Assembly: GCA_014729995.1 (NCBI GenBank)
Contig: WJIZ01000035.1
Coordinates: 1 to 64,000, forward strand
Direction: 5' to 3'
DNA: 64,000 nucleotides
Source of the DNA: Candidatus Woesearchaeota archaeon
Lineage (GTDB): Archaea; Nanobdellota; Nanobdellia; Woesearchaeales; WJIZ01
In this document: positions 2,621 through 64,000 of the stretch, in pieces
Numbering within the stretch: the first letter of the stretch is position 1
Layout of the letters: each line of letters begins with the position of its first letter
Made by a program: the position numbers and the translations under genes
The notes under the pieces: model-generated
Databases searched by the model: none
Seen by the model: only the letters and a program-made list of their open reading frames with translations
Told to the model about the DNA's origin: nothing

Positions 2621-5600
2621 TTGCCTGATAATGATATAGAAGACGAAGAAATAAACATAGATTTTTCTAAAATAAAAAACATGTTCAAAAAGAAAAAAGA
2701 GGCAGTGCCAAGACAAGATACAGAAGAAGACGAGATTTCTTTTGATTTTTCCAAAGTAAAGGGCTTCTTCAGGAATATGAAAAAGGGCTTAAAAGATGAA
2801 GGCAAAAAAGATCAGGAAGATATGGCAGTGGATTATAAGAAAATAATTGCTTTCACAAAAAAACACTACATTTTCTTCTTGATTCTCATTCCCCTTATTT
2901 TATCCATTTACCTGAGGGCAATGCCCGCTTATCTTCCTGTAACGGATGAATGGGCAGAAAGCCAGCTTTATAACATGAATAAAAACATTATAAGCCAGCA
3001 GATAAGAGCGCAATACCCTAACCTTCCGTCTGCCAACATAAATAAGCTAGTAAATGATGAAATAGAAAATCTTATCAAAAATAATGAAATATTAGTTCCA
3101 TCCCCCCAGGGAATACAGAAAGCTCCTTACAAAGAGGCGCTTGCCCAGTATTCGCAGAGTTTCAAAAGCAGGCTGCAAAAAGACGGCCAGACATATCTCC
3201 TGGCAATTGATCCCTATTTTTGGATGCGCCACGCAGAAAATGTCCTGGAAAATAGCCATCCGGGTGATGAGTTGCGAAACCCTGAAACAAGAGAGCCATG
3301 CTCCCAAAAAAATGAAAATTGCGTCCCGTGGAATACGCACATGTTCGCTCCGTTAGGCAGGCAAGTGCCACATGATATGTTTCATGCTTATTTTATGGCC
3401 TACTTTCATAATTTCCTCAGTATATTTAACAGTGAACAGGATATTATGAGTTCAGCTTTTATCATACCTGTACTGCTTTCTGCACTGGCTGTAATACCTG
3501 CCTTTTTCATTGCAAGGAAAATAGCGGGAAATTTTGGCGGATTGCTCGCTGCCTTATTTGTAGCTATTCATCCTGCCTTCCTTACAAGAACAGCAGGCGG
3601 TTTTGCTGACACAGATGCATATAACGTTCTCCTTCCCCTGCTGATAGTCTGGCTCTTTTTAGAGGCATTTGAGACAAAAGACTGGAAAAAAAGCACCGTA
3701 TTAAGCATGGGAGCAGGTCTTCTTGTTGCCCTATTCAGCATGACCTGGGGAGGCTGGTGGTATATATTTGATTTTCTGCTGGCATCACTGGTAATTTATA
3801 TTGCAATCTATCTGTTAACGAACAGGGCCAAATTAAAAAATATACTGAAGCACCAGGCAGTAAAACATTCCCTACTGGTGTTGGCTGTTTTCTTTTTGTC
3901 ATCAATGTTCTTCACTTCTATTATCTCAGGACTCGCTATATTTAATAATGCATTCGAAGGCCCAGGCACTTTCGCAAGATTAAAGGAAGTGGGAATAAGC
4001 AAAGTATGGCCTAACGTATATACGACAGTGGCAGAACAGAATCCTGCGTCATTGAACAATGTGATAAACCAGATCGGCACAGGCAGTCTTTTCTTATTCC
4101 TTTTTGCTATTTTAGGAGTAGTGCTGACATTGGTTAAGCAGGACAGCAGGGACAAAAAAGACCTTGTATATTTCATATTATCTGCAATATGGCTTGTAAT
4201 AATCCTGGCAGTTAAGCCCCAGAATCTCATAATTTTTCTGGTATTAATATCATTGCCCATACTTATAAAATTAATATTGGCAGTATACAGCAGAAACACA
4301 GAAATTGATTTTAAGCTGGCAATAATCCTTATTATCTGGTTTACCTCAACAATATACGCAAGCACAAAAGGCATAAGATACATGCTTTTATTAGTGCCTG
4401 CATTCTCGATTGCCCTGGGAGTTTTATTCGGTTTTGCTTATAATTATATTTCAGCATTCATTCACAGAAATCTCGATCTTAACAAAAAATTAGCAAAAAC
4501 CATTATAATTATACTGCTGCTTTTATTTCTGATAAGGCCATTTAACAGCGCCGCATCAACAGCTAAGAGGGAAATACCAAGCATGAACGATGCATGGTAT
4601 GAATCCCTGGACAAAATAAACCGTGAAGCCTCAGCAGATGCGATAATAAACTCATGGTGGGATTTTGGCCATTGGTTCAAGGCGATAGGGGATAGGGCAG
4701 TCACTTTTGACGGAACCTCACAAAACACTCCCATGGCCCACTGGATAGGCTATACACTTCTAACAAGCGATGAGGACGAAGCTGTGGGCATTCTCAGAAT
4801 GTTGGACTGCGGCTCTAATACAGCATTCAATATACTGGACAAAGATATTGGGGATACTGCGAAATCAGTTGAAATATTGCATGAGACAGTCCGGTTAAAT
4901 GAAGAAGAAGCTAAGTCCATGTTATCAGATTATGTAGATGAAGCAACAGCAGATGAAATCTTGAAATACACCCATTGTGAGTCTCCGGAAAATTACTACA
5001 TTACCTCAGACGACATGATAGGTAAGTCAGGAGTATGGGGGCATTTCGGAATCTGGGATTTTAACAGGGCATTAATCTACAATAAGTTAAAAAATAAGGA
5101 ATTCAGGAACAACAAAGAAAAAAGCATAGAATTCATGCAAAATAGGTTTAATTATACCTATGGTAAAGCAGAATCATTATATTTTGCAGTACAGAACATC
5201 AGAAACTCTGATGAGGCAAATTCCTGGATCGCTCCCTGGCCAAGCTATGCTTCTGGATTGGTTGCCTGCCAGCAGCAGGGAGCAGGCATAATAATATGCC
5301 CTATCAGGGTTCAGCAGGGAGCAGGCACGCTGGATATGAGGATAGACATAGAAAATAAAGAAGCTGAAATAAAAACACCCCAACAAAGCATTTACCCGAA
5401 TGCAATAGTCTATCCTACAGAAACAGGAATTGAAAAGATCGAGTTCGATAATAATACCATAGGCTATTCTATGACACTAGTTCCGTCTGAAAACGGCTGG
5501 CAGTATATCATGATGCTTCCGCCCCTGGAAGACAGCATGTTCACCAGATTGTATTTCCTAGACGGGCATGGCCTGACAAAATTCAGGAAATTCTCTGAAC

Positions 5601-58960: not shown

Positions 58961-60850
58961 TTATGCAATTCTAAAAACAGCCATCCCTCCAGTTTGATGC
59001 ACCTTCTGAAAATTCGACGAAGCGCTTATTTCCTCATACCTTTCAGGCAATAACTCATTTGTTTCATTTTCACCGAACTTTCTCCCTAGATTCCTAAAAG
59101 CCATGCCGTCAACTATTAGATATTCGTATTCATACCTTCTTAACCAGTTATGAACTTCTGATGCATTCTTATATAGTAAATCAGACCTGAACTCCTGCAC
59201 ATGGTCGCACCATGAACAACTGAACATATCAAGGCCAATTACCTGTTCATCATGGGAATATGAAAATACTTTTGTATTTGCAGGCAGATTCTTCAGCCAT
59301 AAATAGCCCTGGATTTCTTCCCCGCTTGTCCACATCTGGCCGGGTCCCCACATAGCTGTATTTACTGCATATTTCTGCTGACCTGACGTCCAGAATATAG
59401 CAAGCACTAAGACAACAACTGTTGCTATCCTGGGTATGCCGATTTTCCTAGTTAAATTTATAAGAAACAAAAATCCTTCTGCAGCTATCAGAGAAAGAGG
59501 AATGGCAAAAAGCATCCAGAATCTAAAAGCAAAAAGCCGGACAGGCAGGTTAAAAGTGAGGCTATTGATGCCCATAAATGTAAAAACAAGCCATGATAAA
59601 GCAATTAAAGCCCATTCCTTCTTTGGTTTTTTCATCGATTTGAAAGAACATATTATTGCGGCTACCCCGATTAACAACAACAAAGAGGCTATAATACCAA
59701 CTCCCACGGGATTATTTATCATATTCTGCCCTTCAAAAAGCTTCATTCCAGGTTTATTTAACAGTAGAAAATCCTTAAGATCATATACCCTATCTGCTGT
59801 TCCTCCTGTGTTCAAAGAACTTAACCTCTCAAAAAATCCTGAAATAACATTGCCTTTCTCAATCGGCTGTTCAAAAAATCCTCCTGCCCTTCTCATGAAT
59901 TGTTCTCTAAAATTAAAGGCCCACCAGACAAGAGAAATAAAATATCCTCCAAATATAGCCAAAAAAGAGGTATAATGAAATTTTTTGTTAAGTATTGATT
60001 TTACAAGAAAAAATAAGATAAAAATTATAAAGAATTTAATTGATTGTGATGGCTGGGTAACCGCGGCGCTTCCCACTAAAAGCATACTGGGAATAGTCCA
60101 TTTTCTGTCATGTTCAATCATTACAAATGCATACAAAGATATTATCAGGATAGTTATTACAAGAGAATGCGACCATATAAAATGGCTCAAGTAACAGGGA
60201 ACCATAGCTAAGATGAAAGTAGCAGCAAGCCCTCCGCTGTTGCTTTTCATAAATTGCCTTGCAAAGAAATAAAAGAAGATAAGCCCCAAAGAAATTATTA
60301 GAGAATTAAAAAATTTCATTGTCCACATCAAAGACTCGGATGTTTGGTGAAGAATGCCCATGAGAGCATCATATCCGGGAGGATAAGGCTCAATATATTT
60401 GAAGGTATCATTTGGATCATCAATCTTCTTTTCAACAGCGATATATTTTATGCTTGATGCATGTGCCCATGGATCATCATCTTCAAAATATGGATAGTTG
60501 AAAGCTCCCTTAGTGTAAGTAAAAAGGCTGAAAAAAAATATGATTAGGACAAAAAAAATGTAAATATCCGACTTTTTGATAGAAAGAACTGGAATTTTGA
60601 ACCCTTTTTTGTAAGTTTTATAAGCAGAATAAATAGGTATTATCAAAACTATAGCAGATAATATTCTCCAATCAAGGGGGACATATAAAAAATCCATGCA
60701 GACTAGCAAAAAAGGTAGAATACCCAAACCAATGCCCACTCTCATAAGGTTTCTTTCAAAAAAATTTTCAGAGTTTTTAAAAAAGAATGTTAAGCTGTAA
60801 CCTAGACCATAAGAATACATAAAAAACAGTATTATAGATATGATACTCAT
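58961..60850 (-). CDS. GT-C-like polytopic membrane protein
   Basis: A 629-residue protein with about 13 TM segments. The first big outer loop contains YFEDDDPWAHASSIKYIA, with clustered acids and a His placed as in AglB and other GT-C enzymes, then EPYPPGYDALMG. The C-terminal soluble part (from about residue 500) has MWTSGEEIQGYLWLKNLP and a cysteine pair in SCSWCDH. GT-C transfer from a lipid carrier is likely. It is divergent from a DPM-like GT2 gene with which it shares a promoter. Confidence 0.73.
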   Translation of the reverse strand: MSIISIILFFMYSYGLGYSLTFFFKNSENFFERNLMRVGIGLGILPFLLVCMDFLYVPLDWRILSAIVLIIPIYSAYKTYKKGFKIPVLSIKKSDIYIFFVLIIFFFSLFTYTKGAFNYPYFEDDDPWAHASSIKYIAVEKKIDDPNDTFKYIEPYPPGYDALMGILHQTSESLMWTMKFFNSLIISLGLIFFYFFARQFMKSNSGGLAATFILAMVPCYLSHFIWSHSLVITILIISLYAFVMIEHDRKWTIPSMLLVGSAAVTQPSQSIKFFIIFILFFLVKSILNKKFHYTSFLAIFGGYFISLVWWAFNFREQFMRRAGGFFEQPIEKGNVISGFFERLSSLNTGGTADRVYDLKDFLLLNKPGMKLFEGQNMINNPVGVGIIASLLLLIGVAAIICSFKSMKKPKKEWALIALSWLVFTFMGINSLTFNLPVRLFAFRFWMLFAIPLSLIAAEGFLFLINLTRKIGIPRIATVVVLVLAIFWTSGQQKYAVNTAMWGPGQMWTSGEEIQGYLWLKNLPANTKVFSYSHDEQVIGLDMFSCSWCDHVQEFRSDLLYKNASEVHNWLRRYEYEYLIVDGMAFRNLGRKFGENETNELLPERYEEISASSNFQKVHQTGGMAVFRIA

Positions 60851-60874
60851 GAATATCTTTCTGCTATTCGAAAT

Positions 60875-60886
60875 CTATTTAAATAG
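60875..60886. promoter_or_regulatory. Palindromic TATA box CTATTTAAATAG serving two divergent genes
   Basis: A perfect 12-bp palindrome centred about 30 bases from the minus-strand ATG (60850) and 26 bases from the plus-strand ATG (60907). No other TATA-like sequence fits either gene as well, so one box may drive both leaderless transcripts. Confidence 0.55.
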
Positions 60887-60906
60887 TTTACTCTTTTATG
60901 GAATAA

Positions 60907-61785
60907 ATGAAAATCATAGTAACTATACCTGCATATAACGAGGAAAAAACCTTGCCCAAAGTGATAGAAGAAGTAAATCAGGCAATGAAGACTTTGGGAT
61001 ACGATTATCAGGTATTGGTAATAGATGATGGCAGTAATGACCGCACTGGAGAAGTTGCTGGAAAAGCAGGAGCCGATGTATTTTATCATCAGGTTAACCT
61101 GGGTCTGGCAGAAGCATTTCGCACTGAGATGAAGCTTGCTCTTCAAAATAATGCTGACATCATTGTCCATATTGATGCTGATGGCCAGTACAGGGGTAAG
61201 GATATAAGTAAATTAATCCGGCCGATAATTGAAAAAAAAGCTGATATAGTCCTGGGTTCAAGATTCAGGGGGCATATCGAAAAGATGTCTTTTATTAAAA
61301 AAATAGGAAACATAGCTTTTTCAAAAGTATTAACAAGCATAACGGGAAAGAGAATCACCGATGGCCAGACAGGATTCAGGGCATTTACAAAAGAAGTAGC
61401 CGGAATAAATATTATATCAAGGCATACATATACACAGGAGCAGGTGATTAAATCAATAAAAAGTAAATACAGGCTGGTAGAAGTTCCTGTTTATTTTGCA
61501 GAAAGAAAGGGAAAGAGTCGATTGATAAAACACCCATTAAGCTATGCCGCAAAGGCATGGATTAATATAATAAGGATTTATAGGGATTATGAACCATTGA
61601 AATTTTTTGGGATTATTGGGGGTTTATTCTTATTTTTAGGGAGCCTGCTGGGTATTCTGATTTTGGCCACTCTAATAAACAAAGGGGTTGTAGGGGGCAT
61701 ACCCAGAGTGATACTTTCAGGGTTGTTCATAACGACAGGCATCCAGATTCTGCTTTTTGGCTTTTTGGCAGATATGAAAAAATAG
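60907..61785 (+). CDS. GT2 polyprenyl-phosphate glycosyltransferase with C-terminal membrane segments
   Basis: A 292-residue DPM/DPG-synthase-like enzyme. VTIPAYNEEKTLPKVI, VIDDGSNDRT and HIDADGQYRGKDI give donor and metal binding; ITDGQTGFRAFTKEV and TYTQEQVIKSIKSKY follow. Two TM segments lie at the C-terminus (about residues 232-256 and 266-287). It charges a membrane lipid carrier with a sugar, probably for the GT-C-like protein encoded divergently. Transcription likely starts at the ATG. Confidence 0.9.
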   Translation: MKIIVTIPAYNEEKTLPKVIEEVNQAMKTLGYDYQVLVIDDGSNDRTGEVAGKAGADVFYHQVNLGLAEAFRTEMKLALQNNADIIVHIDADGQYRGKDISKLIRPIIEKKADIVLGSRFRGHIEKMSFIKKIGNIAFSKVLTSITGKRITDGQTGFRAFTKEVAGINIISRHTYTQEQVIKSIKSKYRLVEVPVYFAERKGKSRLIKHPLSYAAKAWINIIRIYRDYEPLKFFGIIGGLFLFLGSLLGILILATLINKGVVGGIPRVILSGLFITTGIQILLFGFLADMKK

Positions 61786-61813
61786 CTTTCTGCAAGAAGA
61801 AGTGTATTCAACT

Positions 61814-62944
61814 ATGGCGCGCAAAAAAAAAATAAGGATACTTATTTCAGCTTGGGCAGGTACAAGAAATACAGGAGACAATGCAATTTTTATGGGAGAG
61901 GTACGGGCTATCAGGAAGTACGTTCCCAAAGCAGAAATTACGGCATTCACCCAAAATATTGATAATTACATTATAGATAAATTGAGTATAAGAAGCGTAT
62001 CGAATAGATTTTCTAATTTGCTTCAAATAATTAATGAAATAATAAGTTGTGATATATTTATACTGGGAGGGGGCGGCCTTATTCAGGAAAAAACCTCTAT
62101 ATTCACAATTTTCCATCATTGCTACAAAACAATATTAGCTGGTTTGTATAAGAAGAAAATAATAGCTTACAGTCTGGGAATAGAAAAAATAAAATCAAAG
62201 TTCAACAAGATTATTTTGAGCCTTGCATTTAAAAATGCTAAAATTATAATGGTTAGAGACAAAAAATCAAAAAAAAATCTGCTGGATATAAATAAAGATT
62301 TGGAAGGAAAAATAAAAGTAACTGCAGATTGCGCTTTGAACCTTTTCTCAGGAAAAAAACAAAATAAATCTTCATCAAAAATTGGAATTTGCGTCCGTGA
62401 TTGGTTTATATACAATAAGTACCTTACGGTGAATATATCCAGAAAAATCAGTACTATTATAAAACAGGACAAACATAATTGCTTTATTAAAAAAATGACT
62501 CACTGTATTCAAAAACTCATCGAAGAAGGATATAGCATAAATCTGATACCTTTTGAAGGAGTGAGAGACGAAGAAGCGATACAAAAGATTGCCCTAAACC
62601 TAAAGGGCCCTTATAAAGTCATTAAATGGCATTCTGATCCGAGAATCATGTGTAAAATAATATCAGAAATGGATCTTATAGTAGGTATGAGGCTGCATTC
62701 CCTGGTTTTAGGGGCTGCAATGGAGAAAAAATTGATTAGTATCAATTATTCAGAAAAAGTCAAATCATTTATGGATTCATTAGGGCTGTATGATAATCAG
62801 TTCTCCTTGCTGTTTCAGTCTGAAAAATTTATCAAAAAGATAGAAATAGAAATAATGAAAAAAAGTATAGATTACAAAGCAAAATTATCGGAATTAAGAT
62901 GCAGGGAGAGAGAGAATATTATGCTTCTTAAAAAAAATATATAA
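61814..62944 (+). CDS. Polysaccharide pyruvyl transferase family protein (CsaB-like)
   Basis: A 376-residue protein with SAWAGTRNTGDNAIFMGE at the start, LGGGGLIQEKTS, a central region with CVRDWF, and GMRLHSLVLGAAMEKKLISINYSEKVK near the C-terminus. These are the hallmarks of the polysaccharide pyruvyltransferase family, which adds ketal-linked pyruvate from PEP to sugars; CsaB acts on cell-wall polymers that anchor S-layer proteins. The ATG at 61814 is preferred to a GTG four codons earlier. It is downstream of the polyprenyl-phosphate transferase gene by 28 bp. Confidence 0.88.
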   Translation: MARKKKIRILISAWAGTRNTGDNAIFMGEVRAIRKYVPKAEITAFTQNIDNYIIDKLSIRSVSNRFSNLLQIINEIISCDIFILGGGGLIQEKTSIFTIFHHCYKTILAGLYKKKIIAYSLGIEKIKSKFNKIILSLAFKNAKIIMVRDKKSKKNLLDINKDLEGKIKVTADCALNLFSGKKQNKSSSKIGICVRDWFIYNKYLTVNISRKISTIIKQDKHNCFIKKMTHCIQKLIEEGYSINLIPFEGVRDEEAIQKIALNLKGPYKVIKWHSDPRIMCKIISEMDLIVGMRLHSLVLGAAMEKKLISINYSEKVKSFMDSLGLYDNQFSLLFQSEKFIKKIEIEIMKKSIDYKAKLSELRCRERENIMLLKKNI

Positions 62945-62968: not shown

Positions 62969-64000
62969 ATGGAAGATCCAGCAAAGATAGTTGCTTTTGG
63001 CGATTCTATAGTTAAAGAATGGGCTCCTCTTTTAGAGAAGAAACTGAAAAAGAGATATCCTAAAAAAAATATTACTGTAATTAATCAGGGGATTACTGGC
63101 GACACTTCTGAAGATGGTTTAAAAAGGGCCAGAATAATACCAGGGCTTAAACCGAATGTGGTTTTAATCGGATTCGGTATGAATGACTGGAGAAAAGGCA
63201 TCTCAAAAAAAATTTATCAGAAAAATATATCAGAAATAATAAACATACTGAAAAAACCAGGAATCAGGGTTATATTAATTGAAGTGACACCCGACTACAA
63301 CGGCAGATTTTATGAATTCTCAAAAAAAAGATATACAGGGACCAGCAGGATAATAGACACATATAATGAAGTCTTACAAAAGCTGGCAAGGGAGAATAAG
63401 TTAAGGATAGTTATGGCTAATGCCCTCTGGAAAAGAGAGATTAAACCGTTGCAAAAGGGATTAAGGGACGCTATACATCCAAATAGCCTGGGCAAAAAGA
63501 TTATATTAAAAGCATTGCTAAGGGTTGTGCCGCAGGACCATATTACAATACTCTGGCAGTTTAATGGGAGGTTCGGCTTTTGCAATTATGCATGCGAATA
63601 CTGCTATAGGCCCACATCCTGTCAAAAAGAAAGAACAGATATCGGAGATATTAAAAAATGGAAAAGAGCATTTAAGAGGTCATTTGGGGATGAAAAAATC
63701 GTATTTTATCTGTCATATGGAGAGCCGACAATTGCTAAAAAATTTTTTGAAGTCATAAAAATGGTGAGCTCTGAGCCTAAATGGTCGATAATAATGACCA
63801 GTAATTTAAGCAGTATGACCGTATTAAAAAAGATGGTAAAATATCCCATTGTAAAAGAGGGAAGAATGCACATAAATGCATCATTTCATGCTACTCAGAT
63901 AGATCAGGAAAGTTTTATCAAGAGGTTATTGTTCCTTAGAAAACACGGTATAGAGGCTCCTGTAGTTTTTGTTATGTGGCCCCCTTTGATTAAAAAATTT
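62969..64000 (+). CDS. SGNH hydrolase fused to a radical SAM domain, C-terminus beyond window edge
   Basis: An open frame of 344 codons from the ATG at 62969 to the window edge. Residues 1 to about 185 are an SGNH/GDSL hydrolase: FGDSI with S13, NQGITGDT (block II), GFGMNDW (block III, N72) and DAIHPN (D167, H170) complete the catalytic set. From about residue 195 a radical SAM domain follows, with the iron-sulphur motif CNYACEYC (C205, C209, C212) and the later SYGEPT and MTSNL segments. No stop separates the two. SGNH enzymes remove or move acyl groups; the radical SAM half could modify a sugar, lipid or peptide. I do not recognise this fusion. It starts 24 bp after the pyruvyltransferase gene. 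Confidence 0.9.
   Translation, partial: MEDPAKIVAFGDSIVKEWAPLLEKKLKKRYPKKNITVINQGITGDTSEDGLKRARIIPGLKPNVVLIGFGMNDWRKGISKKIYQKNISEIINILKKPGIRVILIEVTPDYNGRFYEFSKKRYTGTSRIIDTYNEVLQKLARENKLRIVMANALWKREIKPLQKGLRDAIHPNSLGKKIILKALLRVVPQDHITILWQFNGRFGFCNYACEYCYRPTSCQKERTDIGDIKKWKRAFKRSFGDEKIVFYLSYGEPTIAKKFFEVIKMVSSEPKWSIIMTSNLSSMTVLKKMVKYPIVKEGRMHINASFHATQIDQESFIKRLLFLRKHGIEAPVVFVMWPPLIKKF

What the first reader, a model, noticed from the sequence alone, without database searches (positions are those of the whole stretch)
62969..64000. SGNH hydrolase and radical SAM domain in one polypeptide
One uninterrupted frame joins a complete SGNH triad (S13, D167, H170) to a radical SAM CxxxCxxC motif (C205, C209, C212). 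The two domains belong to unrelated enzyme classes, and the gene sits in a surface-glycan operon right after a pyruvyltransferase. I do not know of a described system with this fusion. A possible logic is a radical SAM enzyme that modifies a glycan or lipid carbon, paired with a hydrolase that adds or removes an acyl protecting group. The reading frame is seen directly, the function is inference.
Basis: partly seen in the sequence, partly recalled or inferred. Interest (0 to 1): 0.82.

Follow-up and report, generated by a model that had tools for sequence, protein, structure and literature searches.

The report
SGNH esterase fused to radical-SAM enzyme
A small archaeon, and at least two unrelated bacterial lineages, carry one protein that joins an ester-cutting enzyme to a free-radical enzyme, encoded beside a sugar-pyruvate-adding enzyme; it is a real, rare, undescribed two-headed enzyme that probably tailors a surface sugar.

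Summary
The window ends inside the gene; the contig runs on, and the gene is an intact 575-codon frame (window 62969 to about 64696) holding a complete SGNH hydrolase domain (Pfam E 6e-22), a radical SAM domain (E 6e-9, CxxxCxxC) and a basic C-terminal tail.

It is not an assembly accident. The same fusion, colinear and with all catalytic residues kept, occurs in a WOR-3 bacterium and a Cloacimonadota bacterium. A Woesearchaeota contig carries its first 135 residues and then ends. In all four a PF04230 pyruvyltransferase lies upstream: directly before the fusion in three, and in three it is the genome's only one. The fusion is very rare (2 of 353 genomes of the order), which points to horizontal transfer.

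New here: unfused relatives of the radical SAM half, mostly in glycan gene clusters, keep five C-terminal auxiliary-cluster cysteines. The fusions have lost them while keeping the radical-SAM cysteines.

Best reading: a cytosolic, membrane-surface glycan-tailoring enzyme whose SGNH head deacylates, and whose radical SAM head modifies, a sugar intermediate handled by the pyruvyltransferase. Substrate and reaction are inferred. A new variant of known enzyme kinds.

The parts
60907..61785 (+). GT2 glycosyltransferase, first gene of the co-directional run GT2 - pyruvyltransferase - fusion
   Evidence: Pfam PF00535 E 2.2e-23; 50-53% identical to the GT2 beside PF04230 genes of three genomes of the same order
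61802..62944 (+). CsaB-type polysaccharide pyruvyltransferase (PF04230), partner gene; has the RLH motif of CsaB R306/H308
   Evidence: Pfam E 2.1e-36; TIGR03609 CsaB 156 bits, below its equivalog cut-off 213; only PF04230 gene in this genome; GMRLHSL motif, roles of R306/H308 from PMC10435577
62969..64000 (+). SGNH-radical SAM fusion gene, part inside the window (344 of 575 codons); continues on the contig to the stop at 64696 (L019:2970-4697)
62993..63499 (+). SGNH/GDSL hydrolase domain, residues 9-177: FGDS S13, G44, GMND N72, D167, H170
   Evidence: PF13472 E 6.3e-22; motifs; invariant in the three full fusions
63575..63847 (+). radical SAM core, Pfam stretch residues 203-293; barrel continues to about residue 385
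   Evidence: PF04055 E 5.6e-9; predicted beta/alpha barrel of the L021 homologue matches anSME, MoaA, viperin, BtrN
63581..63604 (+). CxxxCxxC [4Fe-4S]/SAM motif, CNYACEYC, residues 205-212
63716..63727 (+). YGEP, residues 250-253, the counterpart of the GGE(P) SAM-binding motif

Best explanation
The gene encodes a bifunctional, cytosolic, anaerobic glycan-tailoring enzyme that works in the same pathway step or block as the adjacent pyruvyltransferase. Shown: one polypeptide; complete SGNH catalytic residues; complete radical SAM cysteine motif; conservation of both across three phyla; linkage to a PF04230 pyruvyltransferase in 4 of 4 genomes; loss of the auxiliary-cluster cysteines that unfused relatives keep. 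Inferred: the SGNH head removes an O-acyl (probably O-acetyl) group from a sugar of a nucleotide- or polyprenyl-linked intermediate, for example freeing the hydroxyls that the pyruvyltransferase needs for its ketal. The radical SAM head makes a 5'-deoxyadenosyl radical that abstracts hydrogen from a carbon of the same sugar and, lacking an auxiliary cluster as electron acceptor, carries out redox-neutral chemistry (dehydration, deoxygenation, rearrangement or epimerisation). The basic amphipathic tail holds the protein at the membrane surface where the lipid-linked glycan is built.
For: Fusion in three independent assemblies with SGNH, radical SAM and GEP residues invariant. Radical SAM half forms one well-supported clade (100/100). 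PF04230 partner upstream in 4 of 4 genomes and sole copy in 3, although only 13 of 338 genomes of the order have any PF04230 gene and only 2 of 353 have the fusion. A radical SAM protein with weak similarity directly follows a pyruvyltransferase in a Lachnospira eligens glycan cluster. Most unfused relatives lie in glycosyltransferase clusters, and one is fused in a 1168-aa protein to what reads like a PseG-type domain and a GT2 domain. Auxiliary Cys: present in all 8 unfused relatives aligned, in STM4011 proteins and in most distant viral relatives; absent in the fusions except window C426. PMC9012708 reports auxiliary clusters as likely electron acceptors in two-electron oxidations such as BtrN. 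Last 60 residues carry net charge +13/+14/+13, and no signal-like or TM-like segment was seen. Xanthan mannose is either acetylated or pyruvylated, and pyruvylation in P. alvei acts on a lipid-linked precursor (PMC6801904).
Against: No substrate, product or activity is known. PF04230 membership does not prove pyruvylation, and neither pyruvyltransferase tested reaches the CsaB equivalog cut-off. A single origin of the gene pair followed by transfer together could explain the adjacency without direct coupling: one clade for the four pyruvyltransferases is not rejected (p-AU 0.31). Only three complete fusions are known, and the fourth is cut by a contig end. Redox-neutral chemistry is argued from absent cysteines only; MoaA, for instance, is redox-neutral and has an auxiliary cluster. 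Epimerisation is the least likely of the named outcomes if it needs a Cys hydrogen donor, because no further Cys is invariant.
Confidence: 0.42

Rival explanations
1. Both heads are active glycan enzymes but act on different substrates or steps; the fusion serves only equal expression or co-localisation, with no channelling on one sugar.
For: Each half has unfused homologues. A separate SGNH-like gene and separate radical SAM genes of this family lie near each other in L064, so the two activities can live apart in one cluster.
Against: Conserved order, short linker (about residues 180-200) and a start codon at the same residue in four genomes; a single origin kept at 42-45% identity.
Confidence: 0.22
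2. The SGNH head is an acyltransferase (O-acetylation using the SGNH triad) rather than a deacylase, so the protein adds an acyl group to a radically modified sugar.
For: SGNH domains are known as acetyltransferases in other glycan systems (PatB/OafB type, from general knowledge).
Against: Closest solved relatives by sequence and fold are esterases/thioesterases (TesA, Axe2, AlinE4, AlAXEase). Known SGNH transferases act outside the membrane with a membrane acyl supplier (general knowledge); no signal-like segment is seen here.
Confidence: 0.15
3. The radical SAM half acts on a protein or peptide, as in sulfatase maturases or RiPP enzymes, and the glycan setting is incidental.
For: Closest solved relative by profile and fold is the sulfatase maturase anSME; SuiB, PqqE and EpeE also match.
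Against: No recurring small precursor gene was seen beside the fusions, though only ORFs of at least 50-120 aa were listed; neighbours are glycan genes; the auxiliary-cluster cysteines typical of anSME and SPASM peptide maturases are lost.
Confidence: 0.12
4. The radical SAM half is a degenerate, non-catalytic scaffold for an active SGNH esterase.
For: Auxiliary cysteines lost and GGEP changed to YGEP/FGEP; long branch of the clade (1.33 changes per column).
Against: CxxxCxxC, GEP and many further residues are invariant across three phyla; STM4011 proteins also have [WY]GE in place of GGE.
Confidence: 0.07

Closest known systems
SGNH/GDSL hydrolases (Pfam PF13472; TesA, Axe2 acetylxylan esterase, AlinE4, AlAXEase)
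   Same: All four SGNH blocks and triad in order; E 6e-22; the best fold matches of the N-terminal half are of this fold
   Different: No signal-like segment, so probably cytosolic; fused to radical SAM
STM4011 family radical SAM proteins (NCBIfam NF038073; STM4011-STM4015 operon)
   Same: Best named match of the radical SAM half (53 bits) over nearly its whole length; shares xGE in place of GGE
   Different: Far below the cut-off of 200; the fusion clade lies outside the STM4011 clade; STM4011 keeps five C-terminal Cys and sits with STM4012-4015 genes, not with PF04230
SPASM/twitch radical SAM enzymes (anSME, BtrN, MoaA)
   Same: Profile and fold matches to anSME, BtrN and MoaA; unfused relatives have C-x17-C ... 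C-x4-C-x-C
   Different: Auxiliary-cluster cysteines absent in the fusions
CsaB / WcaK polysaccharide pyruvyltransferases (the partner gene)
   Same: PF04230, RLH motif
   Different: Below the CsaB equivalog cut-off; substrate unknown

Membership tests
SGNH hydrolase superfamily | Ser in block I (GDS), Gly in block II, Asn in block III (GxND), Asp and His in block V (DxxH) | tested here: met
   S13, G44, N72, D167, H170 present and invariant in the three full fusions; PF13472 above cut-off
SGNH hydrolase superfamily | Esterase or acyl-hydrolase activity | not testable with these tools
   needs an assay
Radical SAM superfamily (PF04055) | CxxxCxxC and a score above the curated cut-off | tested here: met
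   CNYACEYC 205-212; 36.8 bits against 29.5 for the window protein, 32.9 for L020; L021 is below (24.2)
Radical SAM superfamily (PF04055) | Partial beta/alpha barrel | tested here: met
   Predicted model of the L021 radical SAM half, barrel blocks mostly pLDDT 70-93, matches anSME, MoaA, viperin; the window protein itself was not modelled
SPASM/twitch subfamily | C-terminal cysteines ligating one or two auxiliary clusters | tested here: not met
   Five Cys columns filled in 8 of 8 unfused relatives; empty in the three fusions except C426 of the window protein
STM4011 family (NF038073) | Score above 200 bits and STM4012-4015 neighbours | tested here: not met
   53 bits; neighbours are GT2 and PF04230
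CsaB equivalog (TIGR03609), partner gene | Score above 213 bits | tested here: not met
   156 bits (window) and 190 bits (L021); PF04230 family membership itself is met

The most novel reading that the evidence does not exclude
A horizontally spread two-gene module, pyruvyltransferase plus SGNH-radical SAM fusion, makes a previously unknown radically modified (for example deoxygenated, dehydrated or rearranged) and pyruvylated surface sugar, by a radical SAM enzyme that evolved from an auxiliary-cluster ancestor by discarding that cluster and acquiring a deacylase head.
Probability: 0.3. Interest if true: 0.8.

Novelty: new variant of a known kind. Interest (0 to 1): 0.55.

Why it matters
Radical SAM genes are scattered through polysaccharide clusters of bacteria and archaea, mostly without known chemistry. 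A fusion that ties one of them to an esterase, and a constant pyruvyltransferase neighbour, narrows the substrate to a sugar in a pyruvylation pathway and makes the chemistry testable. The clean loss of auxiliary-cluster cysteines in one clade is also a natural experiment on what the auxiliary cluster is for.

Tried and rejected
Chimaeric assembly or frameshift artefact: rejected by two colinear homologues. Viral or plasmid origin: no fusion in the phage, plasmid or IMG/VR searches; plasmid hits covered the SGNH part only, and a plasmid search with the radical SAM half alone found nothing. Filing under STM4011: rejected on score and tree. Window pyruvyltransferase as ortholog of the other fusion-linked ones: they group in only 2-3% of bootstrap trees, but one clade is not rejected, so left open. 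First structure model of the whole L021 protein (4 sequences) was poor, mean pLDDT 56; only the SGNH half gave useful hits. Second model with distant viral radical SAM proteins added resolved the barrel but not the middle of the tail. Tail, about residues 460-575: no Pfam match. Literature: 'radical SAM' with SGNH gave 5 papers that by title and abstract were unrelated; with GDSL and fusion, with pyruvyltransferase, and for STM4011, none.

Full report
CHECK. The reported frame is real: ATG at 62969, open to the window end, with S13, D167, H170 and C205/C209/C212 as stated. The window is part of a 65,615-base contig of a 1.33-Mb genome of 45 contigs, 98% complete. Reading on, the gene ends at window position 64696 after 575 codons and is followed by a convergent TylF-like methyltransferase gene. 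Pfam: Lipase_GDSL_2 at residues 9-177, Radical_SAM at 203-293, both above the curated cut-offs. Composition hardly changes at the junction (GC 0.361 and 0.336).

OTHER GENOMES. A scan of one genome per species for exact matches to six 8-residue peptides of the protein gave three relatives: L020, candidate division WOR-3 bacterium, 556 aa; L021, Candidatus Cloacimonadota bacterium, 564 aa; L022, Candidatus Woesearchaeota archaeon, cut by the contig end after 135 aa, so its radical SAM half is not observed. L020 and L021 are 63% identical to each other and 42-45% identical to the window protein; L022 is 66-67% identical to the two bacterial ones and 47% to the window protein over the part seen. 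The L022 contig was also found in a genome of the same order as the window genome (G173), so the window genome is probably Woesearchaeota-like. Distribution: 2 of 353 genomes of the order, 1 of 125 in the L021 phylum, 1 of 147 in the L020 phylum; no other in two samples of about 370 genomes of the window's and L022's phyla. Such a patchy spread with cross-domain similarity suggests horizontal transfer (inference). Misbinning of the short L022 contig (3.9 kb) cannot be excluded.

PARTNER. In the window, in L021 and in L022 the gene directly before the fusion is a PF04230 pyruvyltransferase (gaps of 24, 46 and 1 bases); in L020 it is also upstream, with an IS110-like transposase-type ORF and a methyltransferase gene between. 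It is the only PF04230 gene in the genomes of the window, L021 and L022, and one of two in L020's. PF04230 genes occur in only 13 of 338 genomes of the order; both fusion carriers are among them. None of the other PF04230 loci of the order that were fetched had an SGNH match, and none had a convincing radical SAM relative, within about 1.5 kb. In Lachnospira eligens a radical SAM protein weakly similar to this family directly follows a pyruvyltransferase in a glycan cluster. The trees do not settle whether the window's pyruvyltransferase and the other three share one origin (p-AU 0.31), so repeated independent pairing is possible but not shown.

RADICAL SAM HALF. Unfused relatives (L040, L041, L042, L043, L064 twice, L066) and the middle part of the multidomain protein L065 align over the barrel and C-terminus. 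All eight carry five cysteines, C-x17-C ... C-x4-C-x-C, of the kind that bind auxiliary clusters in twitch/SPASM enzymes; the three fusions have none of them except C426 of the window protein. STM4011 proteins carry all five and distant viral relatives carry most. The only cysteines invariant in the fusions are C205, C209 and C212. GGEP is YGEP or FGEP. Profile and fold searches reach anSME, BtrN, MoaA, viperin, SuiB, PqqE and EpeE. The fusions are one clade (100/100) outside the STM4011 clade. All such relatives inspected except L043 lie among glycan genes.

SGNH HALF. All catalytic and oxyanion-hole residues are invariant in the three full proteins. Nearest solved proteins are TesA and acetylxylan esterases. 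No stretch in the fusions has the hydrophobicity of a transmembrane segment (highest 19-residue mean 0.9-1.35) and the SGNH block I begins at residue 10, which argues for a cytosolic enzyme.

TAIL. The last 60 residues carry net charge +13, +14 and +13 with amphipathic helices, predicted helical in L021; membrane-surface binding is inferred.

MECHANISM. Shown: architecture, residue conservation, linkage and loss of cysteines. Inferred: substrate class (sugar of a nucleotide- or lipid-linked intermediate), deacylation by the SGNH head, radical chemistry without net oxidation by the other head, membrane association. The review PMC9012708 describes auxiliary clusters as likely electron acceptors in BtrN, PqqE and SuiB, all two-electron oxidations, while MoaA is net redox-neutral despite having one; hence the inference from cluster loss is suggestive only. 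Viperin, a fold match without an auxiliary cluster that acts on a ribose (general knowledge), is a reasonable mechanistic analogue. The review PMC6801904 notes that xanthan's outer mannose is either acetylated or pyruvylated and that pyruvylation in P. alvei acts on a lipid-linked precursor, which makes a deacylase beside a pyruvyltransferase plausible. In L022 a hexapeptide-repeat acyltransferase gene overlaps the start of the pyruvyltransferase gene.

VERDICT. Real, rare, conserved and, as far as the searches here reach, undescribed. Both halves are members of known superfamilies, so I call it a new variant of a known kind, interest 0.55.

Noticed in passing
L065:3457-6963: A 1168-aa archaeal ORF that reads as a PseG-like nucleotide-sugar hydrolase region, a first radical SAM-like region, a second radical SAM region with the five auxiliary Cys, and a GT2 domain in one polypeptide (domain names other than the aligned second radical SAM region are by eye).
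   Followed up: partly
L042:6645-8459: A 604-aa ORF on the minus strand that by eye joins a GT2 domain to a radical SAM domain, next to an unfused radical SAM relative.
   Followed up: no
L064:1541-10967: A glycan-type cluster with two radical SAM relatives of this family and a separate SGNH-like gene (3205-4182), next to a carbamoyltransferase-like gene.
   Followed up: partly
L075-L116 (IMG/VR): 42 viral contigs carry distant radical SAM proteins of this broad family; those read carry C-terminal cysteines; function unknown.
   Followed up: partly
L063, L121: Other PF04230 genes lie beside an F420-hydrogenase beta-subunit-like ferredoxin-type gene (identified by eye).
   Followed up: no
window 58961-61785: The divergent pair membrane protein / GT2 is conserved in another genome of the order (L117, 52% and 51% identity), upstream of a different pyruvyltransferase and without the fusion.
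   Followed up: partly
L020:1106-2146: An IS110-like transposase-type ORF lies between the pyruvyltransferase and the downstream methyltransferase and fusion genes.
   Followed up: no
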